From Nitrososphaerales archaeon (lineage in GTDB: Archaea; Thermoproteota; Nitrososphaeria; Nitrososphaerales; Gagatemarchaeaceae), in the NCBI GenBank assembly GCA_030038395.1, contig JASHOZ010000063.1, positions 1 through 42,719 of the forward strand: 42,719 nucleotides of DNA, in the 5' to 3' direction. A model generated the notes under the pieces. The model was given only the letters and a program-made list of their open reading frames with translations. It was not told the origin of the DNA and did not search any database. Positions within the stretch are counted from its first letter, which is position 1, and each line of letters begins with the position of its first letter. This document shows positions 18,755 to 35,280 of the stretch, piece after piece. Position numbers and translations under genes: made by a program.

Positions 18755-20434
18755 ATGGACGAGGAGCGGCCTTGGAGCGGCGTTCAGAGAAAGGCGATGG
18801 TTTCTGACCCCCATCCGACCCCCCAACCATTGCACTCCTTGATTTCAGAGTCCGCTCGCAGGTTTCCACTGCAGCCATGCTGTCATTACAACGGAGCGGT
18901 CCTGTCCTATAGGGAGGTGGACGAACTGTCCTCGAGGTTCGCGCAGGCGCTGGCCGCGCTCGGCGTACGCAAGGGCGACAGAGTAGCGATATTTCTCCCG
19001 AACACGCCCCAGTTCGTGATTTCCTGTTTCGGCATCTTGAAGGCGGGGGGAGTGATGGTGGCGTGCAACCCCCTCTACAAGGAGCGCGAGCTCGAGCACC
19101 AGCTCGCCGACTCCGGAGCGGAAGTGATCGTGTGCGCCCGCGACGTAGTCGACGGTTCGGACCTCTACGAGAGCCTCGCCGCGTGCAGACCGCGGCTGAA
19201 GCTCAGGCGCGTCATCACCACGAGTGTGACGGACTACCTCCCGCGCGCGAAGAGGCTACTGGCGCCCCTCGCGGGCGTCAAGGTCGTCCCCAGGCCCGAC
19301 ACCGTCGACTTCGTGAGCGTCCTCGGGACCAGCAGGCCGTCGGCCGACCTCCCTCAGGTCGACCCCTCGTCGGACGTCGCGATTCTCCAGTACACCGGGG
19401 GCACGACAGGGGTCTCAAAGGGAGCGATGCTCACTCATTACAACGTCTATTCGGCGACGGTCAGGGCCACGGCGTTCATCCCTCTCACGCAGAACGATGT
19501 CTTCCTCGCCGTTCTCCCCCTCTTCCACGTCTACGGCCTCGTGGCCAACCTTATGCTCCCGGCGACGGTGGGAGCGGAGATCCTCCTTCTCCCACGGTTC
19601 CACGTCAAAGAAGTGATGAAGACTGTCGCGCGGCGGAGGGCAACTGTCTTCTGCGCCGTTCCTGCGATGTACGTGGCGATAAACTCGAGCAAGAGCGTGG
19701 CGAAGTTCGACCTCAGCTCCGTCAGGGTGTGCATCTCGGGGGGGTCCCCGCTCGCGGCCGCGACGAGAGAGAAGTTTATTGCGAGCACTCGTGGCACGCT
19801 CGTGGAGGGGTACGGGCTCTCTGAGACGAGCGCCCTGACTCACTGCAACCCGCTCTTCGAGGGGGGGTACAGGGCGGGATCAGTCGGCATCCCCTTTCCG
19901 GGGACTGATGTCGAGATATTGGACCCGGACGACCCGGGGGCTGTCCTTCCGCTCGGCTCTGTCGGCGAGATCGCCATAAAAGGACCACAGGTGATGAAGG
20001 GCTACTGGAACAGCCCGGAGGAGTCTGGGAAGGCCATCCGTGACGGCTGGCTTCTGACCGGGGACATCGGCAGGCTGGACGAGGACGGCTATCTCTACGT
20101 CGTCGACAGGAAGAAGGACATGATCAACGTTGGAGGCTTCAAGGTCTATCCGAGGGAGGTCGAAGAGGTCCTGTTCGAACACCCTGCCGTCAAGGAGGCC
20201 GGCGTCGTCGCGATGCCGGACAGTTTCAGCGGCGAGGCGGTGAAGGCCTTCGTGGTGCTGAAGGACGGGGCGAGCGCGACCTCCGAGGGGGAGATAGTCG
20301 AATACTGCGCCCGGGAGCTGGCGAGGTTCAAGGTGCCTAAGAGTGTGGTCTTCGTGCCTGAGCTGCCGAAGACGCTCATCGGGAAGGTACTGAGGCGCAA
20401 GCTCAGAGATGATGACGCCGTACGATCATCGTGA
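18755..20434 (+). CDS. fadD: Long-chain acyl-CoA synthetase (AMP-forming)
   Basis: An ANL-superfamily enzyme of 559 residues that activates a carboxylic acid with ATP to acyl-AMP and then to the CoA thioester. The P-loop-like motif is QYTGGTTGVSKGAMLTHYN, A5 is VEGYGLSET, A7 is LLTGDIGRLDEDGYLYVVDR, and the A10 lysine lies in PKTLIGKVLRRKL. The fold and length fit medium/long-chain or aromatic ligases, and the substrate is not defined. ATG 18755 is preferred for its Shine-Dalgarno site. The gene converges on, and overlaps by 32 bases, a canonical thiolase gene. Together with the ACAD and ETF genes further on it forms an acyl-CoA degradation set. Confidence 0.9.
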   Translation: MDEERPWSGVQRKAMVSDPHPTPQPLHSLISESARRFPLQPCCHYNGAVLSYREVDELSSRFAQALAALGVRKGDRVAIFLPNTPQFVISCFGILKAGGVMVACNPLYKERELEHQLADSGAEVIVCARDVVDGSDLYESLAACRPRLKLRRVITTSVTDYLPRAKRLLAPLAGVKVVPRPDTVDFVSVLGTSRPSADLPQVDPSSDVAILQYTGGTTGVSKGAMLTHYNVYSATVRATAFIPLTQNDVFLAVLPLFHVYGLVANLMLPATVGAEILLLPRFHVKEVMKTVARRRATVFCAVPAMYVAINSSKSVAKFDLSSVRVCISGGSPLAAATREKFIASTRGTLVEGYGLSETSALTHCNPLFEGGYRAGSVGIPFPGTDVEILDPDDPGAVLPLGSVGEIAIKGPQVMKGYWNSPEESGKAIRDGWLLTGDIGRLDEDGYLYVVDRKKDMINVGGFKVYPREVEEVLFEHPAVKEAGVVAMPDSFSGEAVKAFVVLKDGASATSEGEIVEYCARELARFKVPKSVVFVPELPKTLIGKVLRRKLRDDDAVRSS

Positions 20435-21590
20435 CAGCGTTCCCTCCCCCCAGGCACAGCGTGGCGAGCCCCGTCTTCCTTCCCTCCCTCTTCATCGTGT
20501 AGAGCAGCGTTGTCAGGACCCTCGCCCCGCTGCAGCCTATGGGGTGGCCGAGGGCGACGGCTCCTCCGTTCACGTTGAACCTCTCCTCGGGGATGTCGAG
20601 GCCGCGCCTCACGGCGATCGACGCCGTCGCGTACGCCTCGTTGTGCTCGAAGAGATCGATCTCCGAAAGCGCCATCCGTGACTTCCTGAGCACCTCCTTC
20701 GTTGTCGGGATAGGCGCTTCCATCACGCGCCCTGGCTCGAGCCCCCCGGTGCCGTACGTCACGATCTCCGCGACTGGCCTGAGCCCCAGCTTCTCCACGG
20801 CCTTCTCAGAAGCGACGACGAGAGCTGACGCGCCGTCGCTGAGCTGCGACGAGTTCCCTGCCGTACAGACCCCCTTCTGCTGGAAGGCGGGCTGCAGCTT
20901 CGCCAGCTTCTCGAGGGTTGTGTCGGGCCGCACGCATTCGTCCTTCTCGAACTCGATCACCTCGCCGTCCTCTCTCTGGACGGTGACCTTCACCATCTCC
21001 TCCGCGAAGTGGCCCGCCGCCTGCGCTCTGGTAGCTTTCATCTGGCTCTGGTACGCGTACTCGTCGGCCTCGGCCCTCGTTATCCCGAACTTCTTCGCCA
21101 CGTGGTCCCCCGTCACGCCCATGTGGTAGTTGTGATAGGCGTCCCACAGGCCGTCGACGATCATCGCGTCCTGAACTCGAGCGTCCCCCAGCCTGACGCC
21201 CCACCGTTCCCCTCTCACTATGTGCGGGGCGTTGCTCATGCTCTCCATGCCTCCCGCGACCACCACGTCGGAGTCCCCCGCCTTGATAGCCTGGGCGGCG
21301 AACATCACCGCCTTCAGGCCCGAGCCGCACACCTTGTTGACCGTGACCGCCCCCGCGGCGAAGGGGACCCCCGCTCCCACCGATGCCTGGCGCGCAGGGT
21401 TCTGCCCCAGGCCCGCGGAAATGACGTTCCCCATGATGACCTCTTCGACGTCGGTAGGCTGCACCTTGGCCCTCCTGATCGCCTCCTTCACCACTATCGC
21501 CCCCAACCTCGGCGCCGCGACCCCGACGAGGCTCTTTCCGAACTTTCCCGTGGCCGTCCTGCAGGCCGACACTATCAGAGCCTTCTCCAT
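20403..21590 (-). CDS. Acetyl-CoA C-acetyltransferase (canonical thiolase)
   Basis: A 395-residue thiolase that cleaves or forms acetoacetyl-CoA. All catalytic residues are intact: nucleophilic Cys in NKVCGSGLKAV, His in GGAVALGHPIGCSG, and the second Cys in TLCLGGGNAV. This contrasts with the degenerate thiolases at 25.6-27.9 kb. The open frame extends upstream to 21698, but ATG 21590 lies 28.5 bases below a TTTATTAT box and starts the homology (MEKALIVSACRTATGKFG). It diverges from the aminotransferase gene. Confidence 0.95.
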   Translation of the reverse strand: MEKALIVSACRTATGKFGKSLVGVAAPRLGAIVVKEAIRRAKVQPTDVEEVIMGNVISAGLGQNPARQASVGAGVPFAAGAVTVNKVCGSGLKAVMFAAQAIKAGDSDVVVAGGMESMSNAPHIVRGERWGVRLGDARVQDAMIVDGLWDAYHNYHMGVTGDHVAKKFGITRAEADEYAYQSQMKATRAQAAGHFAEEMVKVTVQREDGEVIEFEKDECVRPDTTLEKLAKLQPAFQQKGVCTAGNSSQLSDGASALVVASEKAVEKLGLRPVAEIVTYGTGGLEPGRVMEAPIPTTKEVLRKSRMALSEIDLFEHNEAYATASIAVRRGLDIPEERFNVNGGAVALGHPIGCSGARVLTTLLYTMKREGRKTGLATLCLGGGNAVTMIVRRHHL

Positions 21591-21614
21591 CGGCAGCACG
21601 GTCGCCGCCAATCG

Positions 21615-21622
21615 ATAATAAA
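21615..21622 (-). promoter_or_regulatory. TATA box of the thiolase gene
   Basis: Minus-strand TTTATTAT, centred 28.5 bases before ATG 21590. Confidence 0.68.
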
Positions 21623-21649
21623 CGAATGTTCCCATGACGCCTGCATCCC

Positions 21650-21655
21650 TAAATA
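21650..21655 (+). promoter_or_regulatory. TATA box of ilvE
   Basis: TAAATA is centred 32 bases before GTG 21685. The ATG at 21664 lies only 11 bases after the box, so it cannot be on the transcript. Confidence 0.6.
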
Positions 21656-21684
21656 GCGTCCGTATGCGGGACGGGGCGACTGAA

Positions 21685-22602
21685 GTGAAGCCGCTCAAGA
21701 AAATCTGGATGGACGGGAGGTTCGTCGACTGGAACGACGCGAAGATCCACGTGCTGACGCACGGGCTGCACTACGGATACTCGATCTTCGAGGGGATCCG
21801 CTGCTTTTCGACCCCCGACGGCGCGGCCATCTTCAGGCTCGACGAGCACATCGAAAGGTTCCTGAACAGCGCGAAGGTGTACATGATGAAGCTGGGCTAC
21901 TCGCGGAAGGAGCTTCGCGAGGCCTGCATGGAGCTCGTGAGGAAGAACGGCGTCTCCGAGTCATACATCAGACCGATAGCCTACTCTGCTTACGGCGAGA
22001 TGGGGCTCAACCCGCTTGGGAACAGCATTTCTGTCGCAATAGCCTCCTGGGAGTGGGGCGCGTACCTCGGGAAGGAGGGGGCCGACGGCGGCGTGAGGGC
22101 CATGGTCTCGAGTTGGGCGAGGATAGACTCTCGGGCGCTCCCTGTCCAGGCGAAGTGCTCCGCGAACTACGCGAACTCCGCCCTGGCGAAGATCGAGGCG
22201 GTGAGCGCGGGGTACGACGAGGCGATACTCCTCAACACCCACGGCGTCGTGGCCGAGGGCCCCGGGGAAAACATATTCAGGGTAAAGGACGAGATTCTCA
22301 GCACCCCGCCGGCGAGCTCCGGGATACTCAGGGGGATAACGAGGGATACGGTGATAGAGTTCTCACACGACCTCGGCCTGAAGTTCTATCGCAACGACTC
22401 GACGCGCGAAGAGTTGTACACCTCAGACGAGCTCTTCTTCAGCGGGACCGCCGCCGGGGTGGCGAAGATCAAGGAGGTCGACGGGAGAAAGATCGGGGCT
22501 GGGCAGTACCCCATCACCGACAAGATTGCGAAACTGTACGACGACACGGTCCACGGCCGGAACCGCCGCCACTCGCGCTGGCTCGCCGCCGTCGGCGCGT
22601 AG
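21685..22602 (+). CDS. ilvE: Branched-chain amino acid aminotransferase
   Basis: A fold-type IV PLP enzyme of 305 residues, the last step of Val/Leu/Ile synthesis or the first of their breakdown. The N-terminus IWMDGRFVDWNDAKIHVLTH and GYSIFEGIRCF are typical. The PLP lysine is in QAKCSANYANSALAK. The cofactor-binding end reads FFSGTAAGVAKI. GTG 21685 is chosen on promoter spacing and matches the usual archaeal IlvE start. The neighbouring acyl-CoA genes make a catabolic role in branched-chain acid breakdown plausible but unproven. The stop is one base from the convergent DUF35 gene. Confidence 0.92.
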   Translation: MKPLKKIWMDGRFVDWNDAKIHVLTHGLHYGYSIFEGIRCFSTPDGAAIFRLDEHIERFLNSAKVYMMKLGYSRKELREACMELVRKNGVSESYIRPIAYSAYGEMGLNPLGNSISVAIASWEWGAYLGKEGADGGVRAMVSSWARIDSRALPVQAKCSANYANSALAKIEAVSAGYDEAILLNTHGVVAEGPGENIFRVKDEILSTPPASSGILRGITRDTVIEFSHDLGLKFYRNDSTREELYTSDELFFSGTAAGVAKIKEVDGRKIGAGQYPITDKIAKLYDDTVHGRNRRHSRWLAAVGA

Positions 22603-22603
22603 T

Positions 22604-23065
22604 TCACTTCTTCGCGAAGCCGTGCAGGTCTAGCAGCGAGCCTCTCCTCTTGGAGAGTGGCCTGAACCTGGGCGCGACCCTGGAGCCCACGCGAACCCCT
22701 GGGCCTACCGCGAAGTGCACCAGCCCGCCCGTGACCCCGTCGAACTCCACGAAGACATACCTCTTCGGCCTCGCGAGCCGCTCGCCTTGGAACCCGACCC
22801 ACGCCTCTGCCATCGCCGCGACGATCCCGTCCTGACCGACGGCGTCGAACCTGTCTATGGCCCTAAAGCAGTCGGTGCAGTACGCTTTCGGGGGGAGGAA
22901 CCGCTTCCCGCACCCCCCGCACTCCCCCGCGACAATCCTCCCGTCCATCAGCCCGCGGAGGAACCGCTCCCCTGCGACGCCCGCCGTGTACTCGTAGCGG
23001 AAGGGTATTTGGTCGGTCCACGATCTGAGGTCGCCGACGCTCGTGACGCGGTCTCTGAGAGGCAC
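22604..23065 (-). CDS. DUF35 zinc-ribbon/OB-fold protein, second copy
   Basis: A 153-residue DUF35 protein. The zinc ribbon is intact: CGGCGKRFLPPKAYCTDCF (C-x2-C...C-x2-C), followed by an OB-like domain with VEFDGVTGGLVHFAVGPG. DUF35 proteins act as partners of thiolase-type enzymes and bridge CoA substrates, as in the archaeal acetoacetyl-CoA thiolase/HMG-CoA synthase complex and in steroid-degrading aldolases. GTG 23065 starts two bases after the stop of the first DUF35 gene. It is the last gene of the five-gene operon. A longer open frame upstream is a shadow of that neighbour. Confidence 0.85.
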   Translation of the reverse strand: MPLRDRVTSVGDLRSWTDQIPFRYEYTAGVAGERFLRGLMDGRIVAGECGGCGKRFLPPKAYCTDCFRAIDRFDAVGQDGIVAAMAEAWVGFQGERLARPKRYVFVEFDGVTGGLVHFAVGPGVRVGSRVAPRFRPLSKRRGSLLDLHGFAKK

Positions 23066-23067
23066 GT

Positions 23068-23577
23068 TCAGCCCCTCGGCCTGAAGTACCTGATGTCTGT
23101 GATCGCTCCCCTGCGCTTTCCTTTCGGCTTCCACGCAGCCTCCACCTTCATCCCCACTTCCACCCTCTTCGGCTCTACCTCCCCGAGCAAGTGCAGGATG
23201 CCCATCCCCGGGGACGCGCCGTCTATGTCGACCACCGACACTACTATAGGCTCCTTCCTGCGGCTCGCGTCGTTGTTGACATAGCTGATCGAGAACGTGT
23301 TGACCGTCCCAGTGTCGCGCACCCTGACCCACTCGTCCGTCGGGACGAAGTCCTCTTCGCAGTAGGCCCTCGGGGGGACGAGCACCCTTCCGCACTTTCC
23401 GCACTTCTTCCCCCAGATCTCGCCCGACTTCAGGCCGTCCAGGAACCTGCTGACCGCTACCCCCGACGTCCATGAGTATCGCAGGAGCGTCTCGTAGTCC
23501 GAGCTGAGGAATCGGCCCGATCGGAGATCGTCCAGCTCTACCTCGGTTCCCGGGTACTTCGCGATCTTAGAGCTCAA
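23068..23577 (-). CDS. DUF35 zinc-ribbon/OB-fold protein, first copy with incomplete ribbon
   Basis: A 169-residue paralogue of the next gene. The rubredoxin-like motif reads CGKCGRVLVPPRAYCEED: the first three cysteines are present, but the fourth position is occupied by aspartate/glutamate. The OB region IVVSVVDIDGASPGMGILHL is followed by VGMKVEAAWKPKGKRRG. It has an N-terminal extension of about 40 residues that the second copy lacks in part. TTG 23577 lies 32 bases after the acetoacetyl-CoA synthetase stop, with GGAGG in the gap. It may pair with one of the two thiolase-like proteins. Confidence 0.83.
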   Translation of the reverse strand: MSSKIAKYPGTEVELDDLRSGRFLSSDYETLLRYSWTSGVAVSRFLDGLKSGEIWGKKCGKCGRVLVPPRAYCEEDFVPTDEWVRVRDTGTVNTFSISYVNNDASRRKEPIVVSVVDIDGASPGMGILHLLGEVEPKRVEVGMKVEAAWKPKGKRRGAITDIRYFRPRG

Positions 23578-23608
23578 CTGGGTCGTGTAGCCTCCGCACG
23601 ACTAGATT

Positions 23609-25522
23609 TCAAACTTTCCCAGAGGCGCCGAGCCGCCGCGCGAGCTCGACGAAGTACTGCAGCGAAGCGGGGTCGGACAGGGACGCCGTGTTCGCCGCCT
23701 TCTCCCGGTCCGCGCCCATGAGTATCCTCTTGACGGGTATCTCTAGCTTCTTCCCGTTGTGGGTCTTTGGAACGGATGGTACCTCGACTACCTCGTCGGG
23801 GGTGTACCGAGGGCTGAGGTCGCCTCTGACCTTCGACTTTATCCTGGCAGTCAGGTCGAGGTCGAGGGAGTTCCGGCGATAGAGGACGACGAAGAGGAGC
23901 AGACGCGGCGGCCCCCCTGGCCTTTCCAGGTCGACAGCTAGGGAGTCGGCTACCTCGGGGAGCGACTCCACCGAGCGATAGATCTCGCTCGTCCCTATCC
24001 TCACGCCCGATCTCTTTATGGTGGCGTCGGATCGCCCATGAATCACGCAGGTCCCTCTGTCTGTGAACTCGATCCAGTCACCGTGACGCCAGACGCCCGG
24101 GAAGACGCCGAAGTAGCTCTCCCGGTACCTCTCTCCGGTCCGGTCGCCCCACAGGAATAGTGGCATGCTGGGCATGGGTTCCGTGATCACGAGCTCTCCA
24201 ACGCCCCCCGCGACCGGTCTCCCCTCCTCGTCGAAGGCGTCGACTGCCGCTCCAAGGCACCTGCACTGGATCTCCCCGGCATAGACGGGGAGCGTCGGCG
24301 ATCCCCCGACGAAGGCCGTGCAGACGTCCGTCCCTCCGCTGATCGAGTCCAGCCATAGGTCGTGCTTGACCGACGAGTAGACCCACCTAGCCACGTCTGG
24401 AGTGAGCGGGGACCCCGTTGAGCCCACCCCGCGCAGCCTTCTGAGTGTATGAGTGTCCCGTGGTTCCACCCCCTTCTTCATGCACGCCCCCAGATGGGCG
24501 GCGCTCGTCCCCAGAAAGTCGAGGTCCTCCCTCTCGGCGAGGGTCCACAGCGAGCTTGCGTCCGGGTGGAGCGCGCTTCCGTCATAGAGGACGACCGTCG
24601 AGCCCATGATGAGTCCGCTCACCAGGTAGTTCCACATCATCCACCCCGTCGTCGTGAACCAGAAGAAGCGGTCCCCCGCTCGGAGGTCGTTGTGAAGGGA
24701 GAGCACCTTCAGGTGCTCGAGGAGGACTCCGCCATGCCCGTGGACGATCGGCTTCGGGAGCCCGGTGGTCCCTGACGAGTAGAGGATCCATAGCGGGTGG
24801 TCGAAAGGCAGTCGAGCGAACTCGAGCCTCTCGCGGCGGCCCGCGAGGTCGTCCCACAGCATGGCAGGCACGGTCAGTCCCGACGGCGCTTCTCCGCCAG
24901 TCACGACCACCGCCTTCAGCGTGGGGAGGGACGCCGCAATCTCGCGCACGGTCTCAATCCTGTCGAACTCCTTTCCGGCGTAGCTGTAGCGGGCGCACGC
25001 GATCAGTACCTTCGGAGCTATCTGGCTGAATCTGTCACGGACGCCGGGGACGCCGAAGTCGGGCGAGCAGCTCGACCAGACAGCTCCGATGCTCGCCGAT
25101 GCGAGCAACCCCACCACGCTCTCTGGCACATTCGGGACGTAAGCTGCGATCCTGTCCCCCTTCGCGACGCCCAGATCTCTTAGGGCCGCCGCCACGGACG
25201 CGACCTGGCCCCGGAGGTCGGCCCAACCGATCTCCCGCGACGCGCCGCCTTCATCTGCGTAGACGATGGCGGGCCCTGACGAGGTGTTCGGCCTCAGCGC
25301 GTGCTCTGCATAGTTCACTCTGGCCCCCTCGAACCATACCGCGCCGGGCATCTGCGCGCTCTTGAGCGGGGCGGAGTACACCGAGTCGGAGATGACGCCG
25401 CCGGCTCTCCACACGGCCTCCCAGAACGCGCCGAGGCTTCCAACCGACCATCGCCAGACGTCGGCATAGGCGGCGTCCCCAGACTGTCCGCCAGGGTAGT
25501 AAGCGCTGATGAATTTCGTCAT
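23609..25522 (-). CDS. Acetoacetyl-CoA synthetase-type acyl-CoA ligase
   Basis: A large ANL ligase of AacS type, 637 residues from the first ATG. Motifs are LYSSGTTGLPKPIVHGHGG, FWFTTTGWMMWNYLVSGL, ISGGTDV and HGRSDATIKRSGVRIGTSEIY. The A10 lysine is in KTHNGKKLEIPVKRIL. AacS makes acetoacetyl-CoA from acetoacetate, and the true acid could differ. The family N-terminus (human: VMWEPDSK) is recognisable upstream of the ATG as ALWEPDEGWRARAN. No ATG, GTG or TTG lies between the upstream stop and 25522. Only CTG at 25561 would include it. Confidence 0.88.
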   Translation of the reverse strand: MTKFISAYYPGGQSGDAAYADVWRWSVGSLGAFWEAVWRAGGVISDSVYSAPLKSAQMPGAVWFEGARVNYAEHALRPNTSSGPAIVYADEGGASREIGWADLRGQVASVAAALRDLGVAKGDRIAAYVPNVPESVVGLLASASIGAVWSSCSPDFGVPGVRDRFSQIAPKVLIACARYSYAGKEFDRIETVREIAASLPTLKAVVVTGGEAPSGLTVPAMLWDDLAGRRERLEFARLPFDHPLWILYSSGTTGLPKPIVHGHGGVLLEHLKVLSLHNDLRAGDRFFWFTTTGWMMWNYLVSGLIMGSTVVLYDGSALHPDASSLWTLAEREDLDFLGTSAAHLGACMKKGVEPRDTHTLRRLRGVGSTGSPLTPDVARWVYSSVKHDLWLDSISGGTDVCTAFVGGSPTLPVYAGEIQCRCLGAAVDAFDEEGRPVAGGVGELVITEPMPSMPLFLWGDRTGERYRESYFGVFPGVWRHGDWIEFTDRGTCVIHGRSDATIKRSGVRIGTSEIYRSVESLPEVADSLAVDLERPGGPPRLLLFVVLYRRNSLDLDLTARIKSKVRGDLSPRYTPDEVVEVPSVPKTHNGKKLEIPVKRILMGADREKAANTASLSDPASLQYFVELARRLGASGKV

Positions 25523-25591
25523 GTTCGCACGCGCCCGCCACCCTTCGTCGGGCTCCCACAGAGCGGCGACTTCCCGACGGGTCGCGGGTTC

Positions 25592-26749
25592 CTACCTCCG
25601 CATCGTGATTACTGTCCCGACCTGCAGCAGGTCGCCCCAGGCCTGCGCCAGCCCGCGGTTGACCTCCTTCTTGACCTGCCTCTTCCCCGCCTCTCCGCGG
25701 AGTTGCCAGAAGAGCTCGCAGACCTTCATCGTCCCCGCGGCCGCTATCGGGTTGCCCACGCCGAGGAGTCCCCCTGAGGGATTGATCGGGAGGTCTCCGT
25801 CTCGCTGCGTGACCCCCTCTCGCGTGAGCTTCGGCGCTTCCCCCTTCCCGGCCAGCAGGACCCCTTCCATGTGGTGGAGTTCCTTGTAGTCGAATGGGTC
25901 GTACACTTCGGCGAAGTCAATCTGCTTCCGAGGGTTGTCAATCTTCGCCATCTTGTAGGCCATCCTGGCCGCTGCCTCGACGTACCTGGGGTAGTACAGG
26001 TCCCTGTTGGTCCAGTACTGCGTGTCTACGTTCCATCCGACTCCGTCAATCCAGACGGGGTCGTCAGTGTACTTCCTGACGACGTCCTCGGACACGAGCA
26101 TCAGGGCCGCCGCGCCGTCAGACGTCGGCGACACGTCGAGCCTTTTCACGGGGAGGCAGATCGGCTCGCTCTTCATGACGTCATCGACCGTTATCCTGGC
26201 AGGGAGTTGCGCGCACGGGTGGTCGAGGGCGTTCCCCTTGTTCTTCACTGAGACCAGCGCGATGTCCTCCTCCTTCACCTTGTGGACGGCCATGTATCGT
26301 CTCATCTCTAGCGAGAAGATCCACAGAAGCGTGACGCCGAGTGGCCTCTCCAGAGTGTGGTCGAAGATGCTCCAGAACGCGTACTGAGGGTGCGGCCGAA
26401 GTGGAGACATCTTCTCCTCTCCCACCACTAGGCAGGTATCGAACATCCCTGACGCCACATGCCACCACCCAGCGACCGGGGCGAAGACGCCCGTGCCCCC
26501 GCCAACGTAGACCCGGCTGTACGGCCTGTTCGTCCCCCCCGCGCCGTCCATGAGGTACTCCCCCTTCATGTGAACCCCGTCGAATGCGTCCGGCGCCGTC
26601 CCGAGCACAACCGACTCGACATCCTTGATTTCCATGTTCGCGGAATCCAGGGCCATCCTGCTCGCCTGGAAGGACATCTCCCTCCCGGTTTCGAGCATCC
26701 TCCGCCTGAACTTCGTCATCCCGGCGCCGACGACGGCTACTCTCTTCAC
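25592..26749 (-). CDS. SCP-x-type thiolase-like protein lacking catalytic Cys and His
   Basis: A 385-residue thiolase-fold protein of the non-specific lipid-transfer/SCP-x group (VASGMFDTCLVVGEEKMS, VSPTSDGAAALMLVSED, INPSGGLLGVG). The nucleophile position, normally CASG, reads GGTG (G84). The catalytic GHP reads GNP (N333). So neither thiolase residue is present and Claisen chemistry is not expected. It may be a structural or regulatory subunit, or an aldolase-like enzyme using other side chains (tyrosines near residues 273-288, VYDPFDYKE). It starts four bases after the other thiolase-like gene, in the same frame as the downstream ligase. Confidence 0.88.
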   Translation of the reverse strand: MKRVAVVGAGMTKFRRRMLETGREMSFQASRMALDSANMEIKDVESVVLGTAPDAFDGVHMKGEYLMDGAGGTNRPYSRVYVGGGTGVFAPVAGWWHVASGMFDTCLVVGEEKMSPLRPHPQYAFWSIFDHTLERPLGVTLLWIFSLEMRRYMAVHKVKEEDIALVSVKNKGNALDHPCAQLPARITVDDVMKSEPICLPVKRLDVSPTSDGAAALMLVSEDVVRKYTDDPVWIDGVGWNVDTQYWTNRDLYYPRYVEAAARMAYKMAKIDNPRKQIDFAEVYDPFDYKELHHMEGVLLAGKGEAPKLTREGVTQRDGDLPINPSGGLLGVGNPIAAAGTMKVCELFWQLRGEAGKRQVKKEVNRGLAQAWGDLLQVGTVITMRR

Positions 26750-26753
26750 TCCT

Positions 26754-27881
26754 TCATCTCCCCACCGAGAGCGCGATGGCCGCCCCCGTGGCAGTAGGGT
26801 TTCCTCTCCACGACAAGGCGAGGGCGGTGCCAGGCTTCCCTCGCTGATTCCCTCCGGCTCTCCCTCTGAGCTGGAGAGCGCACTCGAGGACCCGGTGCGA
26901 GCCCGTCGCCTCGATCAGGTGACCTGTGCCTAACGAGCCTCCGCTAGGGTTGACCCTGCCTTCTTCGACCATCTTGATCGCCGAGGCCTTGGGCACTCCG
27001 ACCGAGGAGAGATGCTGCAGAAGCTTGTAGGAATACGTGTCGTCTATCTCGAGGAGGTCGAATGAGTCTGCACCTCTCCTACCGGCCTGCTTCATTACCG
27101 ACCTGAAGGCCTCCGACGCGTATTCAGGTCGCATTATGTCGCCCCCCTCAAACCACGGTGCGGAGGACCTCCAAGCGAGCCCGTCCACACTCACCCCGTC
27201 CTTCTTGTTCTTCTTCGCCCACCTCTCGGACGCAAAAACTACGACCGTCCCTGCTTCCGCGAACTCTGCCTTGTCATACTTCAGCAGGGGCGCCGCGATC
27301 GGCTCGGCGTCGCTAACCTCCTTGAGCTCTAGCGTCCCTCCGTAACTCGCGCGTCCGTTCGACAGTGCCCTTGCCTTCTCTGCCTTCACTATCCTGCTGA
27401 CATCATCTCTCGTAACGCCCGACCTCCGCATGAATGCGCTCATTTCCAGCCCCGCAAGCACGTCCGAGCCGGCGCCCGTCTGCCTGTGATACACAGGGTC
27501 TAGGGCGAGGTTCTCAACGGCCCGCTTGTCAAGCACGTCGGCGACCTTGCTGTGTGCCTCGACCGAGACCACGTCGGCCACGCCAGAGCGGATGTGCATG
27601 ACGGCGTGCCCCATCCCGATTATCCCGTCGGCGGGTACTGTGCACACCGGCCTCCTCGCTCCCCCCACCTGGTCTGGCACCATCTCGTCGGTGATGCTCC
27701 ATCCTTCCCAGAAGTCCTCGGTGCAGCAGATGAAGGAGTCGATGTCTGTCCTCGGGTCGACCGAGGCATCCGCGTACGCCTTGGACGCCGCCAGGAACAT
27801 CAGCTCTCTCGTGGAGACGTCGGTTATGGTAGGCCTGAACCCCTCGTACCCCACGCCGATGATGCAGACGCCTTCAGGCAC
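26754..27881 (-). CDS. SCP-x-type thiolase-like protein lacking the nucleophilic Cys
   Basis: A 375-residue paralogue of the next gene and first of its operon. The nucleophile CASG position reads PADG (P83). The only nearby cysteine is C80, three residues earlier. The catalytic histidine is kept (NPSGGSLGTGHLIEATG, H321). The final family cysteine is replaced (LSWRGNPTATGAA). Tyrosines Y283 and Y285 lie where aldolase-type relatives such as Ltp2 use tyrosine. With the DUF35 partners it may form a heteromeric CoA aldolase or a proton-shuttling lyase; that is inference. GTG 27881 follows a GGGGGG run. Confidence 0.88.
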   Translation of the reverse strand: MPEGVCIIGVGYEGFRPTITDVSTRELMFLAASKAYADASVDPRTDIDSFICCTEDFWEGWSITDEMVPDQVGGARRPVCTVPADGIIGMGHAVMHIRSGVADVVSVEAHSKVADVLDKRAVENLALDPVYHRQTGAGSDVLAGLEMSAFMRRSGVTRDDVSRIVKAEKARALSNGRASYGGTLELKEVSDAEPIAAPLLKYDKAEFAEAGTVVVFASERWAKKNKKDGVSVDGLAWRSSAPWFEGGDIMRPEYASEAFRSVMKQAGRRGADSFDLLEIDDTYSYKLLQHLSSVGVPKASAIKMVEEGRVNPSGGSLGTGHLIEATGSHRVLECALQLRGRAGGNQRGKPGTALALSWRGNPTATGAAIALSVGR

Positions 27882-28199: not shown

Positions 28200-28817
28200 T
28201 TAGTGGATTGGGAACAGGATGAAGACAGCGATGTCCCACACGAAGTGGCTGGCTACGTTGGAGGACATATCCCCGGTGAAGTAGAATACCGCGCCCCAGA
28301 CGGAGTCCACGATGAACGTGGTGACGGCCCAGAGCAGGTTGAGGCTGACGAGATGGATGGCGGCGTCTGCGGCAGCGATTGCGAAGGGAGATGCGACTCC
28401 CAGTCTCCCGTCGCCAGCCCTCTGGAGCACCCCTCTGAAGAAGGACTCGTACCCCACCGCGTCGAACACTAGAACCAGAACCTGAAGGCCGATCGGATTT
28501 GATGGGGATGCGATCAAGGAGTAGATCGAGTCCTCAGACGAGGCACCGATTCCCAGCGGGTGGAGGGCGTCGATCCCCGCGGCGCCCGCCACGAAGAGGA
28601 GGTACAGCAGGACCGCGGAAATCAGTCCGATTACAAGTGTGCGGGCCTTCGGCCTGAAGAGCCTGGTGTAGCCTCCGAGGGACACACTCGCCGCGATCAT
28701 GCAGGAAGTAGAGAGGAAGGTCAGGTCGATGAAGTCAGCCTTGCTGGCCGTGAGCAGCAACACCATGGACGCCACCACTATGACGAGGCCCGGCAGCATC
28801 CTGACTGAGGTCCGCAA
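28200..28817 (-). CDS. CPBP-family (CAAX-like) membrane protein with altered active site
   Basis: A 205-residue polytopic membrane protein related to CPBP intramembrane metalloproteases, with about six helices. The first family motif, normally EExxFRG, reads YESFFRG, so the leading glutamate is replaced by tyrosine. The second and third motifs, AAIHLVSLN and SHFVWDIAVF, keep their histidines. Protease activity is therefore doubtful. TTG 28817 is chosen because it lies 27 bases below a CTTTATG box; the TTG at 28838 touches that box. Confidence 0.7.
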   Translation of the reverse strand: MRTSVRMLPGLVIVVASMVLLLTASKADFIDLTFLSTSCMIAASVSLGGYTRLFRPKARTLVIGLISAVLLYLLFVAGAAGIDALHPLGIGASSEDSIYSLIASPSNPIGLQVLVLVFDAVGYESFFRGVLQRAGDGRLGVASPFAIAAADAAIHLVSLNLLWAVTTFIVDSVWGAVFYFTGDMSSNVASHFVWDIAVFILFPIH

Positions 28818-28840
28818 TCGCCCCAGGGTGCCCGACAAGG

Positions 28841-29005: not shown

Positions 29006-29851
29006 ATGACGTTCTCCTCCGTAACCTTGGGGACGCTTCTGGCCGCCCTCAGCGGAAGGTTCAGTCCCGTCCTGTACCTCGTTGCCCTGGGTGGAATGAT
29101 AGCGTTCCACGCCGCGGCAAACGTACTCAATGACTACTACGATGTGAGGCACGGGGTAGACAGGGCAGGCGCTCCGACGACGAAGTATAGGCCGCACCCC
29201 GCGGCGCTGGGGCAGTCGCCTCTCTCCGCCACGCTCGGCTTCTCCTTGGGGCTTTACGCCGTGACCCTGCTTGCCGGGGCGTACCTCGCATACGCCACCG
29301 AGCCGCTTCTGCTCGTCTTGGTACTCGCGGGCGTGGCCGGTAGTGTATTCTACACGGCCGACCCCCTTGTCCTGAAGAAGAGGGCGATGGGTGAGCTGAC
29401 CGTATTCTTGATGTGGGGGGTGCTCGTCCCCCTAGGCGCCTTCATCGTCCAGACGAGCTCAATCTCTTGGCTCCCTGTAGCCGCCGCCGTCCCCATCGGC
29501 ATCCTCGTCGGGCTCGTTCTCCTGGCCAACAATACTCGCGACATCGACTACGACGGGTCTGTGGGGATGCGGACACTTGCTGTGGTCCTTGGGGCCAAGC
29601 GGGCGTCGAGGCTGTACGAGGCGCTGCTCGCGGCGGTCTACGCGATTGTACTGGGGGGAGTCGTCGTGAGGGCCTTGCCGGTGTGGTGCCTGCTGGTCTT
29701 TCTCACGGCGCCGGAGGCACTGAGTCTGAGGAAGATGTTCCGCGGCGCCATACCCGACGATGCGGACCCGAGGACCGCGGCGCTCGCGCTGAAGTTCTCC
29801 TTGCTGTACATGTGCGGTCTAGTGCTGGCCATCGTGGCGCCGAGGATGTAG
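29006..29851 (+). CDS. menA: UbiA-superfamily prenyltransferase, MenA-like
   Basis: Predicted 1,4-dihydroxy-2-naphthoate polyprenyltransferase, the membrane step that attaches the isoprenoid tail of menaquinone. The first Asp-rich motif NVLNDYYDVRHGVDRAG and the second NNTRDIDYDGSVGMRTLAV are typical of MenA; about eight helices. The homologous N-terminus continues upstream of ATG 29006 (LSTRPWSFS precedes it in frame), so the real protein is probably about 16 residues longer. The only plausible start there is ATA 28958, ten bases after GGAGG. It would supply the quinone for the oxidoreductase at 35.3 kb. Confidence 0.85.
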   Translation: MTFSSVTLGTLLAALSGRFSPVLYLVALGGMIAFHAAANVLNDYYDVRHGVDRAGAPTTKYRPHPAALGQSPLSATLGFSLGLYAVTLLAGAYLAYATEPLLLVLVLAGVAGSVFYTADPLVLKKRAMGELTVFLMWGVLVPLGAFIVQTSSISWLPVAAAVPIGILVGLVLLANNTRDIDYDGSVGMRTLAVVLGAKRASRLYEALLAAVYAIVLGGVVVRALPVWCLLVFLTAPEALSLRKMFRGAIPDDADPRTAALALKFSLLYMCGLVLAIVAPRM

Positions 29852-32369: not shown

Positions 32370-33539
32370 TTGCAACTCTTCAGCTCCGAGCACCAGTCCA
32401 TGCTGAAGAGCTTCCGCCCCTCGGACTACCCCGAGCACATGGAGGTGCTCTCCTCCTTGGGGTCTTTCATGGAGAGTGAGCTGCTACCGAGGTCCTCCAG
32501 GTTCGACTCCGGGCAGGAGTCGATCGCCCCGTACAGACGAAGGCTGATGGAGCACGGCATCTGCGCGATTCCATTTCCCCGCGAGCACGGCGGCCTGGGA
32601 CTCCCCTTTCTAATCTATGCGAGCGCGATCGAACTCCTGGGCGCGGCTGACGCCTCGACCGCTCTTAGCGTGGAGATCCACAACGCCGTCGCGGAAGGGA
32701 TAATGAGGTTCGGCAGCGACGAACAGAGGTCCGGTCTCCTTCCCCTGCTTCTATCAGGCAAGAAGCTGGCATCGTTCGCGCTCACCGAGCCCGCCTCTGG
32801 CTCCGACGCCAGGACAGTCCGGACCTTGGCAGAGAGGTCGGGGAAGGGCTTCACACTGAACGGCTCGAAGACCTTCATCACGAACGCCGGCGAGGCCGAC
32901 CTGTACATGGTGTTCGCGCGTACAGGCAGAGGTCCGTCGTGTTTCATCGTCGAGGCCTCTTCCCCAGGCGTCAGCGTGGGGACGCCGATGCTGAAGCTCG
33001 GGATGCGCGGCTCCCGGACGGCAGAGGTCTCGTTCCGCGACTGCGAAGTGCCCATGGAGAACCTCGTAGGCGCGGAGGGGGAGGGGATCGACTACGCGAC
33101 CGCCATCCTGCACGGCGCGAGGATAGTGGTCGCGGCCCTCAACGTAGGCATCGCGAGGCTTGCCTACGACGGGGTCATGCGCTACAGCAAGACCAGGACT
33201 GCGTTCGAGAAGCCGATATCAGAGTTCCAGCTCGTGCGGGAGAAGATTGCGGACATGAAGACTGGCATCAACGCGGGGAGGCTGCTATACTACTACGCCT
33301 CCTGCCTCAAGGAGAACGGCCAGGACTACTCATCGGAGGCGGCTCAAGCAAAGGTGTTCGCGACGGAGATGTCGCTCAGGGTCTGCGACTCTGCGATCCA
33401 GCTGTACGGCGGGTATGGTTACACGACGGAGGACCTGCACCGGCCATGGAGGGACGCCCGCCTGCTGACGATTGGCGAAGGGACTTCGGAGATCTTGCGT
33501 CTTCTGATCGCTAGCAGGGAGCTGGCCCGGGCGTCGTGA
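32370..33539 (+). CDS. Acyl-CoA dehydrogenase
   Basis: An FAD enzyme of 389 residues that introduces a trans-2 double bond into acyl-CoA and hands electrons to ETF. Family motifs: FALTEPASGSDA (FAD/substrate loop), FITNAGEADLYMVFART, GMRGSRTAEVSFRDCEVP, and the C-terminal YGGYGYTTE followed by ARLLTIGEGTSEILRL. The glutamate of that last motif is the usual catalytic base of short/medium-chain enzymes. TTG 32370 is the start. The stop overlaps the ETF-beta start by four bases (GTGA), so the three genes form one operon. Confidence 0.94.
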   Translation: MQLFSSEHQSMLKSFRPSDYPEHMEVLSSLGSFMESELLPRSSRFDSGQESIAPYRRRLMEHGICAIPFPREHGGLGLPFLIYASAIELLGAADASTALSVEIHNAVAEGIMRFGSDEQRSGLLPLLLSGKKLASFALTEPASGSDARTVRTLAERSGKGFTLNGSKTFITNAGEADLYMVFARTGRGPSCFIVEASSPGVSVGTPMLKLGMRGSRTAEVSFRDCEVPMENLVGAEGEGIDYATAILHGARIVVAALNVGIARLAYDGVMRYSKTRTAFEKPISEFQLVREKIADMKTGINAGRLLYYYASCLKENGQDYSSEAAQAKVFATEMSLRVCDSAIQLYGGYGYTTEDLHRPWRDARLLTIGEGTSEILRLLIASRELARAS

Positions 33540-34303
33540 ACGTAGCGGTCTGCGTAAAGCACGCCGTCGACGAAGGCGAGCTCAGATTCGACCCGGCCGG
33601 GAGACCTCTGATCGAGGGAGCGGCTGGGAAAATGGGGGCGTTCGATAAGAACGCTGTTGAGGCTGCGCTGCGCGTCAGGTCGGAGGTCGGAGGTGAGGTC
33701 GTGGGGGTGACGGTCGGCGGAGCGGACGCGAGGAAGTCTCTGAAGGAAGCGCTTGCGATGGGGGCAGACAGGGGGGTGCACGTCCTAGACGAGCCCCATC
33801 TCCTGAATCCGTCGAGGACCTCGGCGCTCCTGGCAGCGTCGCTGCGCGAGGCGGGTCAGTTTGACCTGGTGCTCTGTGCGGAGGGCTCATCGGACACCTA
33901 CTCCGGGCTCGTCCCGCCGATGGTGGCCGAGCGCCTGGGCTACGCGTACGTCGGATATGCCAGGAAGCTCGGGGTGACCGCCTCCGAGGTCAGGGCAGAG
34001 AGGTCGCTCGAGGAAAGCATAGAGTCCGTCGCGTCTCCCCTGCCTGCTGTCATCTCGGTCGTCAGCGAAGCCAACGAGCCGCGTTATCCCACCCTCATCC
34101 AGATAATGCAGGCTTCAAAGAAACCGGTCGCGGAGGTCAGGGCCCAGGACCTCCTCTCGGCCGGGGGGACGCACTCCGTGACCATCGGATCCATGTTCGC
34201 GCACTCGACAGACAGGAAGAGGATATTTCTCGAGGGGACGACCGACGAGGCTGCCGCGAAGCTCGTCGACGCTCTGCGCAAGGAGGGGGTCATCTCGGTT
34301 TGA
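33536..34303 (+). CDS. etfB: Electron transfer flavoprotein beta subunit
   Basis: The beta subunit of ETF, 255 residues, carrying AMP or a second flavin. VAVCVKHAVDEGELRFDP at the N-terminus and FDKNAVEAALRVRSEVGGEV followed by GVTVGGADARKSLKEALAMGAD are typical. The end LPAVISVVSEANEPRYPTL is the conserved ETF-beta signature. It takes electrons from the acyl-CoA dehydrogenase just upstream. GTG 33536 is in an overlap with that gene's stop. Whether it bifurcates electrons cannot be told. Confidence 0.95.
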   Translation: MNVAVCVKHAVDEGELRFDPAGRPLIEGAAGKMGAFDKNAVEAALRVRSEVGGEVVGVTVGGADARKSLKEALAMGADRGVHVLDEPHLLNPSRTSALLAASLREAGQFDLVLCAEGSSDTYSGLVPPMVAERLGYAYVGYARKLGVTASEVRAERSLEESIESVASPLPAVISVVSEANEPRYPTLIQIMQASKKPVAEVRAQDLLSAGGTHSVTIGSMFAHSTDRKRIFLEGTTDEAAAKLVDALRKEGVISV

Positions 34304-35229
34304 CGGGCGACGTTTGGTCGTTCTCCGAGAACGCGGCAGTTGCGTCAGAAGTCGCTCTCGCGGCCGAGGGCTTGGCGCCCGCAGTCCAAGGGGGTCCGGT
34401 CGTCGTGGAGGTCGGCAGGGCGAGGGATGGCGTCCGGGGGGGAGGCGAGAGACTGGTCCTTCAGGGGTGTCCGCAGGACGGCCCGGCAGAAGCACTTGCA
34501 GAGTGCATCTCGAGGGCGGCGAAGAGCCTGGGGCCCGCGATCATACTTGTGGGCGCGACGAGGGAGGGCCGCGAAGTGGCGGCGAGGCTCGCTGTGAAGC
34601 TAGATGTCGGCTGCCTCCCCGAGGCATCGCGGATCTCCTCAGATGGCAAGACGGTCTCGGCGGAGCGGAGCGTGTATGCCGGCAGGGTCTCCGCCACGCT
34701 GACGAGCCCGCTCCCCTGCGTCGTGACGGTCAGGCCCGGCTCCTTCGCGAAGTCGACCGGGGCGACAGGGACCGTGCGGAACTACGACGCGGGGACTCCA
34801 GAAGTCAGAGTCAGGAGGCTTGGCTCCTCTAGGCGAGAGACGGGCTCGGTGGACCTCAAGTCCGCGAAGGTCATAGTGTCCGCGGGACGGGGCGTAAAGA
34901 GGAAGGAGGACCTTCCGATGCTGGAGGGGCTGGCCAGCGAGATGAAGGGTGCCCTCGGCTGCTCTCGTCCGCTGTCGTCCGACCTCGGCTGGCTCTCGGA
35001 GGAGCACCACATCGGGCTGACGGGGGTAGTAGTCAAGCCGGACCTCTATCTGGCCGTCGGCATCTCGGGGCAGCTGCAGCACATCGCTGGGATGAAGGAC
35101 TCCAAAGTGGTCGCGGCCGTCAACACGGACAGGGACGCACCGATATTCCAGGCTTCTGACTACGGCATTGTCGGCGACCTGTACCAGGTCGTTCCCGCGC
35201 TGCGTAAAGCCCTTTCAGCACGCCACTGA
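34300..35229 (+). CDS. etfA: Electron transfer flavoprotein alpha subunit
   Basis: The alpha subunit of ETF, 309 residues, with the FAD domain at the C-terminus: VSAGRGVKRKEDLPMLEGLA, RPLSSDLGWLSEEHHIGLTG, VVVKPDLYLAVGISGQLQHIAGM and NTDRDAPIFQASDYGIVGDL. TTG 34300 overlaps the etfB stop by four bases (TTGA). It docks on the membrane Fe-S oxidoreductase encoded 52 bases downstream, judging from context. Confidence 0.95.
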   Translation: MTGDVWSFSENAAVASEVALAAEGLAPAVQGGPVVVEVGRARDGVRGGGERLVLQGCPQDGPAEALAECISRAAKSLGPAIILVGATREGREVAARLAVKLDVGCLPEASRISSDGKTVSAERSVYAGRVSATLTSPLPCVVTVRPGSFAKSTGATGTVRNYDAGTPEVRVRRLGSSRRETGSVDLKSAKVIVSAGRGVKRKEDLPMLEGLASEMKGALGCSRPLSSDLGWLSEEHHIGLTGVVVKPDLYLAVGISGQLQHIAGMKDSKVVAAVNTDRDAPIFQASDYGIVGDLYQVVPALRKALSARH

Positions 35230-35250
35230 TCCCCTAAATGGCGGACAAGC

Positions 35251-35256
35251 CTTAAG
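35251..35256 (+). promoter_or_regulatory. TATA box of the membrane Fe-S oxidoreductase gene
   Basis: CTTAAG is centred 27.5 bases before ATG 35281. This gene can be transcribed apart from the ETF genes. Confidence 0.62.
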
Positions 35257-35280
35257 CGCGTCGGCATCCCCCCGCGCCCG

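What the first reader, a model, noticed from the sequence alone, without database searches (positions are those of the whole stretch)
22604..27881. Five-gene operon of two catalytically degenerate thiolases, an acetoacetyl-CoA synthetase-type ligase and two DUF35 proteins
Seen: five genes on one strand, gaps of 4, 69, 31 and 2 bases. Both SCP-x thiolases lack the nucleophilic Cys (P83 and G84 at the CASG position), and one also lacks the catalytic His (N333). Known: DUF35 proteins partner thiolase-fold enzymes in archaeal acetoacetyl-CoA thiolase/HMG-CoA synthase complexes, BbsAB and the Ltp2-ChsH2 aldolase, the last of which lacks thiolase Cys chemistry. Inference: the pairing of two thiolases with two DUF35s suggests a heterotetramer doing retro-aldol, decarboxylative or other C-C chemistry on a CoA ester made by the ligase.
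Basis: partly seen in the sequence, partly recalled or inferred. Interest (0 to 1): 0.86.

Follow-up and report, generated by a model that had tools for sequence, protein, structure and literature searches.

The report
Archaeal paired Cys-less thiolase-like enzyme complex
An archaeal gene block encodes two thiolase-shaped proteins that have both lost the thiolase cysteine, plus two small partner proteins; one of the pair keeps a strictly conserved different active site, so the block probably makes an enzyme that forms or breaks carbon-carbon bonds of coenzyme A compounds and whose reaction has not been worked out.

Summary
The conserved unit is four genes, T1-T2-DUF35a-DUF35b, found across the window's phylum and in some Asgard MAGs. 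In a 398-genome phylum sample 85 genomes hold T2, and all 85 also hold T1 (75 by cut-off, 10 on inspection). In 7 of 7 genomes checked where the DUF35 pair is not beside T1-T2, it lies elsewhere in tandem. The acetoacetate-ligase-type gene is an add-on of one thaumarchaeal clade; another family has an acetyl-CoA-synthetase-like ligase in the same operon.

T2 is not decayed: Gly84, Y283-D-P-F and N333 are invariant in 58 of 58 sequences. T1 varies at those places, so it is probably a non-catalytic paralogue. T2's Tyr stands where the steroid aldolases Ltp2 and Sal have their catalytic Tyr, but their second catalytic residue is missing, so T2 belongs to neither.

Best reading: a hetero-oligomeric CoA-ester C-C lyase (retro-aldolase type) in branched-chain acyl-CoA catabolism, T2 catalytic, substrate unknown. 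The carboxylase of the classical leucine route is absent from the window's complete-genome relative.

The parts
26754..27881 (-). T1: thiolase-fold protein, 375 aa; P83 at the nucleophile position (27633-27635), His321 present but not conserved in the family; proposed non-catalytic partner
   Evidence: (best NCBIfam PRK06066, 371 bits, below its cut-off 516)
25592..26749 (-). T2: thiolase-fold protein, 385 aa; proposed catalytic subunit
   Evidence: (PRK06065, 677 bits, cut-off 455)
26498..26500 (-). T2 Gly84 codon, in place of the nucleophilic Cys (Gly in 58 of 58)
25892..25903 (-). T2 Y283-D-P-F286 motif, at the place of HDCF of SCP2-type thiolases and of YDHF/YDCY/YDCF of Ltp2/Sal/TbSLP (invariant in 58 of 58)
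25751..25753 (-). T2 Asn333 codon, in place of the catalytic His of GHP (invariant in 58 of 58)
23609..25522 (-). acetoacetate--CoA-ligase-type enzyme, 637 aa; clade-specific member of the operon
23068..23577 (-). DUF35a: zinc-ribbon/OB-fold protein, 169 aa
22604..23065 (-). DUF35b: zinc-ribbon protein, 153 aa; same place in the block as the genes whose nearest solved structure is SSO2064 (PDB 3IRB)
21634..22602 (+). branched-chain-amino-acid transaminase (TIGR01122 389 bits, cut-off 246), convergent with the block and kept there in the window's relatives
20403..21698 (-). canonical acetyl-CoA acetyltransferase with its Cys (TIGR01930 440 bits, cut-off 241); kept near the block in the ligase-bearing clade
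32370..33539 (+). acyl-CoA dehydrogenase, first gene of an ACAD-ETF cluster
33536..37107 (+). two ETF subunits and a 4Fe-4S/CCG-domain oxidoreductase (33536-34303, 34300-35229, 35281-37107)

Best explanation
The core is a four-gene block encoding one hetero-oligomeric enzyme. T1 and T2 come from an old duplication of an archaeal SCP2-type thiolase. T2 is the catalytic subunit and carries a rebuilt active site: Gly84 for the nucleophilic Cys, Tyr283 (YDPF) for the HDCF His, Pro285 for the second Cys, Asn333 for the GHP His. T1 has a degenerate site and most likely supports T2. The two DUF35 proteins probably clamp the thiolase-fold subunits and help hold CoA, as DUF35 subunits do in solved complexes. 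Most likely chemistry: Tyr283 deprotonates the beta-hydroxyl of a 3-hydroxyacyl-CoA, the C2-C3 bond breaks, and the CoA-ester enolate held at the old oxyanion site is protonated, giving acetyl- or propionyl-CoA plus a ketone, aldehyde or keto acid (or the reverse aldol). The company of acyl-CoA dehydrogenase, ETF, 2-oxoacid:ferredoxin oxidoreductase, branched-chain transaminase, B12 acyl-CoA mutase and CoA ligases points to branched-chain (amino-acid-derived) acyl-CoA catabolism, the ligase activating an acid that enters or leaves the reaction. Shown: gene pairing, loss of thiolase residues, invariance of the new residues in T2 and variation in T1, common ancestry of T1 and T2, gene company. 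Inferred: complex formation, catalysis by T2 only, retro-aldol chemistry, branched-chain substrate.
For: T2 G84, Y283, D284, P285, F286, Y288, K289, E290, H292, H293, N333, W371 and D373 in 58 of 58; T1 has S 21, A 18, P 12, T 9, C 1 of 61 at the nucleophile place and Y 18, V 18, H 7, N 4, W 4 and others at the His place (table). T1+T2 one clade against archaeal Cys thiolases, with canonical thiolases as a (long-branched) outgroup, support 100/99, 39 rows. T2 dN/dS 0.037 against 0.10 for T1; median identity to the window 69.6% (T2, 57 loci) and 40.9% (T1, 60 loci). Catalytic Tyr of YDHF/YDCY, and Gly at the Cys position in CtSal: PMC12329534, passages. T2 and T1 models match SCP2-type thiolases and also 6ok1 (Ltp2) and 9myr (Sal). 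The own genome keeps at least three Cys thiolases, two of them beside a zf-ChsH2 gene. Gene company.
Against: The second catalytic residue of both characterised aldolases is absent (Pro285 for Sal Cys304 and Ltp2 His296; Asn333 for Ltp2 Tyr344). A Tyr here is also found in TbSLP, whose reaction is not settled. The equivalence with Ltp2/Sal residues rests on the motif and the equal spacing of 50 residues, not on an alignment made here. In the fold searches the aldolases rank behind ordinary thiolases. T1 keeps invariant residues of its own (Thr81, His110, Lys112, Gly320 in 61 of 61), so a catalytic share is not excluded. No hydratase gene was seen to be fixed in the block. The branched-chain transaminase could serve biosynthesis. 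No complex could be modelled.
Confidence: 0.45

Rival explanations
1. T2 is a CoA-ester enzyme of another kind with the same enolate-stabilising site: a decarboxylase of a 2-carboxy- or 3-oxoacyl-CoA, a decarboxylating Claisen-type enzyme, or a Cys-free acyltransferase.
For: Thiolase-fold sites stabilise CoA enolates in general (established knowledge); TbSLP, which shares the Tyr motif, slowly decarboxylates malonyl-CoA (passage); PhlACB shows a thiolase/DUF35 complex doing acyl transfer, though with its Cys88.
Against: The clustering of neighbours showed no carboxylase kept beside the block; PF01039 (biotin-dependent carboxyltransferase) is absent from 9 of 26 genomes searched, all 9 of which hold T1. 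The other 17 have it, block-bearing ones among them.
Confidence: 0.2
2. In the window's clade the complex is a non-orthologous HMG-CoA lyase: HMG-CoA to acetyl-CoA plus acetoacetate; the operon's ligase makes acetoacetyl-CoA and the neighbouring Cys thiolase makes two acetyl-CoA.
For: The acetoacetate-type ligase sits inside the operon and a Cys thiolase close by in that clade; no PF00682 (HMGL-like) match in G000, the complete G010 or G100.
Against: No PF01039 in G000, G010 and G097, so methylcrotonyl-CoA carboxylase and the usual leucine route to HMG-CoA are missing; PF00682 is also missing in G044 and G025, which lack T1; the ligase differs or is absent in other lineages.
Confidence: 0.12
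3. The block is not an enzyme of its own but an acyl-CoA-binding scaffold or sensor serving the neighbouring acyl-CoA dehydrogenase or ligase.
For: DUF35 proteins act as scaffolds (PMC6996347, passages); T1's thiolase site is degenerate.
Against: T2 keeps a set of polar residues invariant where the thiolase site would be, and the neighbours differ between lineages while the four genes do not.
Confidence: 0.1
4. Both are decaying thiolases, or use another nucleophile for ordinary thiolysis.
For: Thr or Ser near the site (T2 Thr86 in 56 of 58; T1 Ser or Thr at 83 in 30 of 61).
Against: T2 has the lowest dN/dS of the five genes and Gly84/Asn333 are fixed; the genome has at least three Cys thiolases.
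Confidence: 0.05

Closest known systems
Ltp2-ChsH2(DUF35) steroid side-chain aldolase (PDB 6ok1)
   Same: thiolase fold, Tyr in the xDxF motif, DUF35 partner; lack of the nucleophilic Cys is recalled
   Different: YDHF and Tyr344 against YDPF and Asn333; a single thiolase-fold gene and DUF35 on a larger ChsH2 protein (recalled); bacterial
Sal-Shy(DUF35) bile-acid aldolase (PDB 9myr)
   Same: Gly at the nucleophile place, catalytic Tyr302 in YDCY, an amide residue (Gln352) 50 residues on as Asn333 is in T2, DUF35 partner
   Different: essential Cys304 is Pro285 in T2; a homodimer of Sal flanked by two copies of one DUF35 domain, against two thiolase-like and two DUF35 genes
PhlACB acyltransferase (PDB 5m3k)
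   Same: an active and a Cys-less thiolase-superfamily subunit held by a DUF35 protein
   Different: PhlC keeps Cys88; its inactive partner is HMG-CoA-synthase-like, whereas T1 is a paralogue of T2
[quoted passage not shown]
   Same: fold and DUF35 partner; nearest structural match of T1
   Different: thiolase keeps Cys and His (alignment)
NCBIfam PRK06065 and PRK06066 'thiolase domain-containing protein'
   Same: T2 passes PRK06065; T1's best model is PRK06066
   Different: the names give no function; T1 is below the PRK06066 cut-off
SSO2064 (PDB 3IRB), DUF35 protein of Sulfolobus solfataricus
   Same: best structure match of the L101 DUF35b, 137 bits, against 67 bits for its DUF35a
   Different: the parts of its paper that I read do not describe a T1/T2 pair

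Membership tests
SCP2-type / archaeal thiolase | nucleophilic Cys in CxS(G) | tested here: not met
   T2 Gly84 in 58 of 58; T1 Cys in 1 of 61
SCP2-type / archaeal thiolase | catalytic His of GHP | tested here: not met
   T2 Asn333 in 58 of 58; T1 His in 7 of 61, the window's T1 among them
SCP2-type / archaeal thiolase | second Cys (HDCF) | tested here: not met
   T2 Pro285 in 58 of 58; T1 Arg 29 and Thr 22 of 61 at 282
Ltp2 aldolase | catalytic Tyr of YDHF | tested here: met
   T2 Tyr283 in 58 of 58, aligned with the H of HDxF; Ltp2 motif from PMC12329534
Ltp2 aldolase | second catalytic Tyr344 and oxyanion His296 | tested here: not met
   Asn333 (by equal spacing, no alignment made) and Pro285
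Sal aldolase | Tyr302 and Cys304 of YDCY | tested here: not met
   Tyr present, Cys replaced by Pro285
Ltp2/Sal aldolases | retro-aldol cleavage of a 3-hydroxyacyl-CoA | not testable with these tools
   needs biochemistry
DUF35-thiolase complexes | conserved gene association with zinc-ribbon/OB DUF35 genes | tested here: met
DUF35-thiolase complexes | physical complex | not testable with these tools
   only single chains were modelled
PhlACB | active Cys in the catalytic thiolase subunit | tested here: not met
PRK06065 (NF004721) | T2 score above curated cut-off | tested here: met
   677 against 455 bits
PRK06066 (NF004722) | T1 score above curated cut-off | tested here: not met
   371 against 516 bits
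acetoacetate--CoA ligase TIGR01217 | score above curated cut-off | tested here: met
   795 against 521 bits
benzoylsuccinyl-CoA thiolase BbsB (NF053628) | score above curated cut-off | tested here: not met
   T2 118, T1 52, cut-off 750 bits

The most novel reading that the evidence does not exclude
A new class of CoA-dependent aldolase/lyase: a heteromeric T1-T2-DUF35a-DUF35b enzyme with a Tyr/Asn site unlike the characterised thiolase-fold aldolases, spread through the Thermoproteota and some Asgard archaea, carrying out a carboxylation-free C-C cleavage of branched 3-hydroxyacyl-CoAs (for example 3-hydroxyisovaleryl-CoA, 3-hydroxyisobutyryl-CoA or HMG-CoA). It would fill a gap in archaeal branched-chain amino-acid catabolism in genomes that lack both the carboxylase and a DRE-TIM HMG-CoA lyase.
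Probability: 0.3. Interest if true: 0.82.

Novelty: new variant of a known kind. Interest (0 to 1): 0.62.

Why it matters
A deeply conserved archaeal gene block is filed as 'thiolase domain-containing protein', yet its likely catalytic subunit has none of the thiolase catalytic residues and keeps a different set invariant. If the reading holds, it adds a further Cys-free use of the thiolase fold with DUF35 partners, gives a concrete candidate for an unassigned step of archaeal branched-chain acyl-CoA metabolism, and gives the orphan DUF35 structure family of SSO2064 a partner set. It can be tested by expressing four genes.

Tried and rejected
Acetone route: PF02538 (HyuB) is in 7 of 7 block-bearing and 2 of 10 block-free genomes of the window's family, which looked like an acetone carboxylase feeding the ligase. 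In G000 the HyuAB pair lies beside an N-methyl-L-tryptophan-oxidase gene (409 bits, cut-off 257) and scores best with caprolactamase, below cut-off; acetophenone carboxylase subunits come next and no acetone carboxylase model was listed. Dropped.

Classical leucine route through HMG-CoA: PF01039 is absent in G000, G010 and G097. Dropped as a general role, kept as a low-probability rival.

Plasmid-borne relatives: 559 records match T2, all under 60% identity; the best of the 40 listed is 36%, so no ortholog was seen.

Direct alignment with Ltp2 or Sal sequences: a Mycobacterium branderi plasmid stretch was used as a bridge, but the two of its thiolases that I tried brought up other PDB entries first, so the Ltp2/Sal comparison rests on the residue numbers printed in PMC12329534. 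A family search meant to find Ltp2 in control genomes gave no match over the cut-off.

Gene fusions: none between T1 and T2, between the DUF35s or across, in the ORFs of loci L050-L189 at the thresholds used.

First tree: it held one wrong row (own_L003, a non-thiolase ORF picked by length); rebuilt with the right ORF and fewer rows. Only one search is used for T1/T2 ancestry.

Literature: ten searches (open-licence library) turned up no paper assigning a function to this pair in their listings. Six papers were opened: PMC2954200 (passages and section 13), PMC12329534 (abstract, outline, passages), PMC6449355, PMC6996347, PMC6392133 and PMC5797428 (passages only).


Full report
Observation. 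Pfam and NCBIfam confirm two thiolase-fold proteins (here T1 and T2), a ligase that passes the acetoacetate--CoA ligase model, and two zinc-ribbon proteins of the DUF35 (ChsH2) type, of which DUF35b does not reach the OB-fold model. T2 passes NCBIfam PRK06065; T1's best model is PRK06066, below its cut-off; both are named only 'thiolase domain-containing protein'. The window is contig C17 of a 1.49-Mb, 91% complete genome. The closest records are Thaumarchaeota/Nitrososphaerales MAGs. Against the orthologous block L050 all five genes have dN/dS under 0.35, T2 lowest at 0.037, with dS near saturation.

The active sites. Cys-containing archaeal paralogues have ACAS(S/G) or a close variant, HDCF/HDAF and GHP. 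T2 has GG(G/A)TG, YDPFxYKELHH and GVGNPI. In 58 T2 sequences (the window plus 57 of 60 loci that were found through T1; L059, L083 and L106 were dropped as too short) Gly84, Tyr283, Asp284, Pro285, Phe286, Tyr288, Lys289, Glu290, His292, His293, Asn333, Trp371 and Asp373 are each 58 of 58. In 61 T1 sequences the nucleophile place is S 21, A 18, P 12, T 9, C 1, and the His place is Y 18, V 18, H 7, N 4, W 4 and ten others. T1 has fixed residues of its own (Thr81, His110, Lys112, Gly320 in 61 of 61), so it is not simply decaying. In twelve further T2 loci, including diverged families, YDPF is in 12 of 12 and GVGNP in 11 of 12; the twelfth (L301) is a shortened ORF.

T1 and T2 are sisters. In a 39-row tree (13 T1, 13 T2, 8 archaeal Cys thiolases, 5 canonical thiolases as outgroup) T1, T2 and T1+T2 are each one side of a branch, T1+T2 with support 100/99. 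The outgroup branch is long (3.6). An earlier tree held one wrong row. Likely history: one ancestor lost thiolase chemistry and duplicated, and one copy kept a fixed new site. Median identity to the window is 69.6% for T2 and 40.9% for T1.

The conserved unit is four genes. All 10 with T2 only have a diverged T1 directly upstream, one of them cut by a contig end. The one with T1 only, G429, is 76% complete and was not inspected. The two searches together gave 90 non-own genomes with T1; I fetched 60 of them, and 49 of 60 have T1, T2 and two DUF35 genes on one strand. The 11 others: two at contig ends (L058, L059), one with a single DUF35 (L078), one with T2 turned round and the DUF35 pair nearby (L104), and seven with no DUF35 near (L083, L086, L089, L091, L092, L094, and L106 on a 4.4-kb contig with T1 and T2 on opposite strands). 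In all seven of these genomes a DUF35a-DUF35b tandem lies elsewhere. Of the 80 named loci (the best 80 of 532; the search patterns hold PSGGLLGVG but not Asn333) 71 have the full block. The nine others: six cut by contig ends (L114, L118, L136, L141, L153, L163), L115 with the DUF35 pair on the other strand, L116 not followed up, and L175, which by its contig length is the record of L094. The two sets overlap in part. The named set includes Thaumarchaeota, Bathyarchaeota, Marsarchaeota, Geothermarchaeota, Nitrosocaldus, Thorarchaeota and Baldrarchaeum. Within the window's order 19 of 101 genomes have T1, and many of the same genus do not, so the block is patchy at short range.

Gene company. 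The acetoacetate-ligase-type gene lies in the block in 6 of 60 whole-genome loci, all of the window's family, and in further named thaumarchaeal loci. In loci of unnamed family f35, taken here as Sulfolobales because the DUF35b of L101 is closest to SSO2064, an acetyl-CoA-synthetase-like ligase (below every NCBIfam cut-off in those tested) overlaps the end of DUF35b by 4 bases in seven loci: L078, L087, L096, L098, L099, L101 and L107. An acyl-CoA dehydrogenase gene lies within the fetched stretch in 30 of 60 and 37 of 80 loci, and within 300 bases of T1 or DUF35b on the same strand in 12 (family checked on samples). An IorA-like gene (below cut-off) is near in 6 of 60 and 3 of 80, and a POR-domain gene lies within 118 bases of T1 in L064-L066, L132, L161 and L165, some of them the same contigs. 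In the window's clade a branched-chain transaminase (over cut-off in the window) converges on the block in 6 of 60 loci and a Cys thiolase is near. In Bathyarchaeota a B12 acyl-CoA mutase large subunit is near in 10 of 80 named loci, mostly with its small subunit and MeaB. Ten of its 12 large subunits have Gln in NDxLKEF(F/I)AQ and five have Phe in TMRMFAG; from recall these are the places of methylmalonyl-CoA mutase Arg207 and Tyr89, and Gln with Phe marks isobutyryl-CoA mutase. The theme is branched-chain acyl-CoA metabolism (inference). Many loci show none of these neighbours in the stretch fetched.

What it is not. The classical leucine route needs methylcrotonyl-CoA carboxylase; PF01039 is missing in 9 of 26 genomes searched, all block-bearing, including the window's genome and the complete relative G010, and present in 17, block-bearing ones among them. 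PF00682, which includes HMG-CoA lyase among other enzymes, is missing in 8 of 26, including G000, G010 and G100 but also the T1-free G044 and G025; its matches in the other 18 were not sorted by function. Acetone carboxylase was considered and dropped.

Mechanism. In the steroid aldolases the catalytic base is the Tyr of YDHF (TcLtp2 Tyr294) or YDCY (CtSal Tyr302). CtSal has Gly at the nucleophilic Cys place. The residue 50 positions after the Tyr is Tyr344 in TcLtp2 (acid) and Gln352 in CtSal (inert); CtSal uses Cys304 as acid (PMC12329534, passages; the TcLtp2 paper is not held). T2 has the Tyr, the Gly, and Asn 50 positions on, but Pro where CtSal has Cys304. The base is in place and the acid is not identified; Lys289, His292 and His293, fixed in T2, are candidates, though whether they reach the pocket was not tested. 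The T2 and T1 models (mean pLDDT 81 and 87) match SCP2-type thiolases, BbsB, PhlC, TbSLP, Ltp2 and Sal, with ordinary thiolases first, so the fold comparison does not decide the chemistry. I hold the retro-aldol reading at 0.45.

Known or new. In ten paper searches (open-licence library) no listed paper assigned a function to this pair. The nearest print is the SSO2064 structure paper (passages and genome-context section); its protein is of the DUF35b kind (137 bits to the L101 DUF35b, 67 to its DUF35a), and it points to the active-plus-inactive thiolase pair of the phl operon. The Sulfolobus acidocaldarius fatty-acid cluster paper (passages) mentions thiolase-superfamily genes but I saw nothing there on this pair. 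PhlACB is the best architectural analogue, but PhlC keeps its Cys (PMC6392133, passages). The finding is a new variant of the thiolase-fold/DUF35 systems, not yet a new category.

Noticed in passing
L148, L154, L158, L168, L170-L172, L174 (downstream of DUF35b): B12-dependent acyl-CoA mutase genes follow the block in Bathyarchaeota; Gln at the Arg207 place in 10 of 12 large subunits and Phe at the Tyr89 place in 5 of 12 suggest (signature recalled) an isobutyryl-CoA-type mutase.
   Followed up: partly
L135, L144, L152, L077, L079, L081: A formylmethanofuran dehydrogenase subunit B gene lies downstream of the block in 3 of 60 and 3 of 80 loci, partly the same contigs; chance or a one-carbon link is open.
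   Followed up: no
window 23350-23352 (DUF35a residue 76): The fourth zinc Cys of DUF35a is Asp in the window; 12 of 124 DUF35a ORFs matched have Asp (some are the same contig twice), in the window's close relatives and in Nitrosocaldus-type loci, while most have Cys.
   Followed up: partly
L185 and L179: The block occurs in MAGs labelled Anaerolineales and Armatimonadetes; L185 T1 and T2 group with a Thorarchaeota MAG, so mis-binning is possible.
   Followed up: partly
L281-L287: In several families of the phylum T1-T2 and the DUF35a-DUF35b tandem lie at distant places of the genome.
   Followed up: yes
L254:2223-6016: HyuA/HyuB pair in the window's genome beside an N-methyl-L-tryptophan-oxidase gene, most like caprolactamase but below cut-off; HyuB is in 7 of 7 block-bearing and 2 of 10 block-free genomes of the family.
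   Followed up: partly
L301:5699-6694 and L083:7020-8009: T2 is shortened at its C-terminal end in two MAGs of one genus; assembly error or real loss not settled.
   Followed up: no
window 17513-18637, 28200-28838, 29006-29851: DUF373 protein, Rce1-like protease and UbiA-like prenyltransferase near the block; the Rce1-like gene and an LLM-type oxidoreductase are kept near the block in relatives.
   Followed up: no
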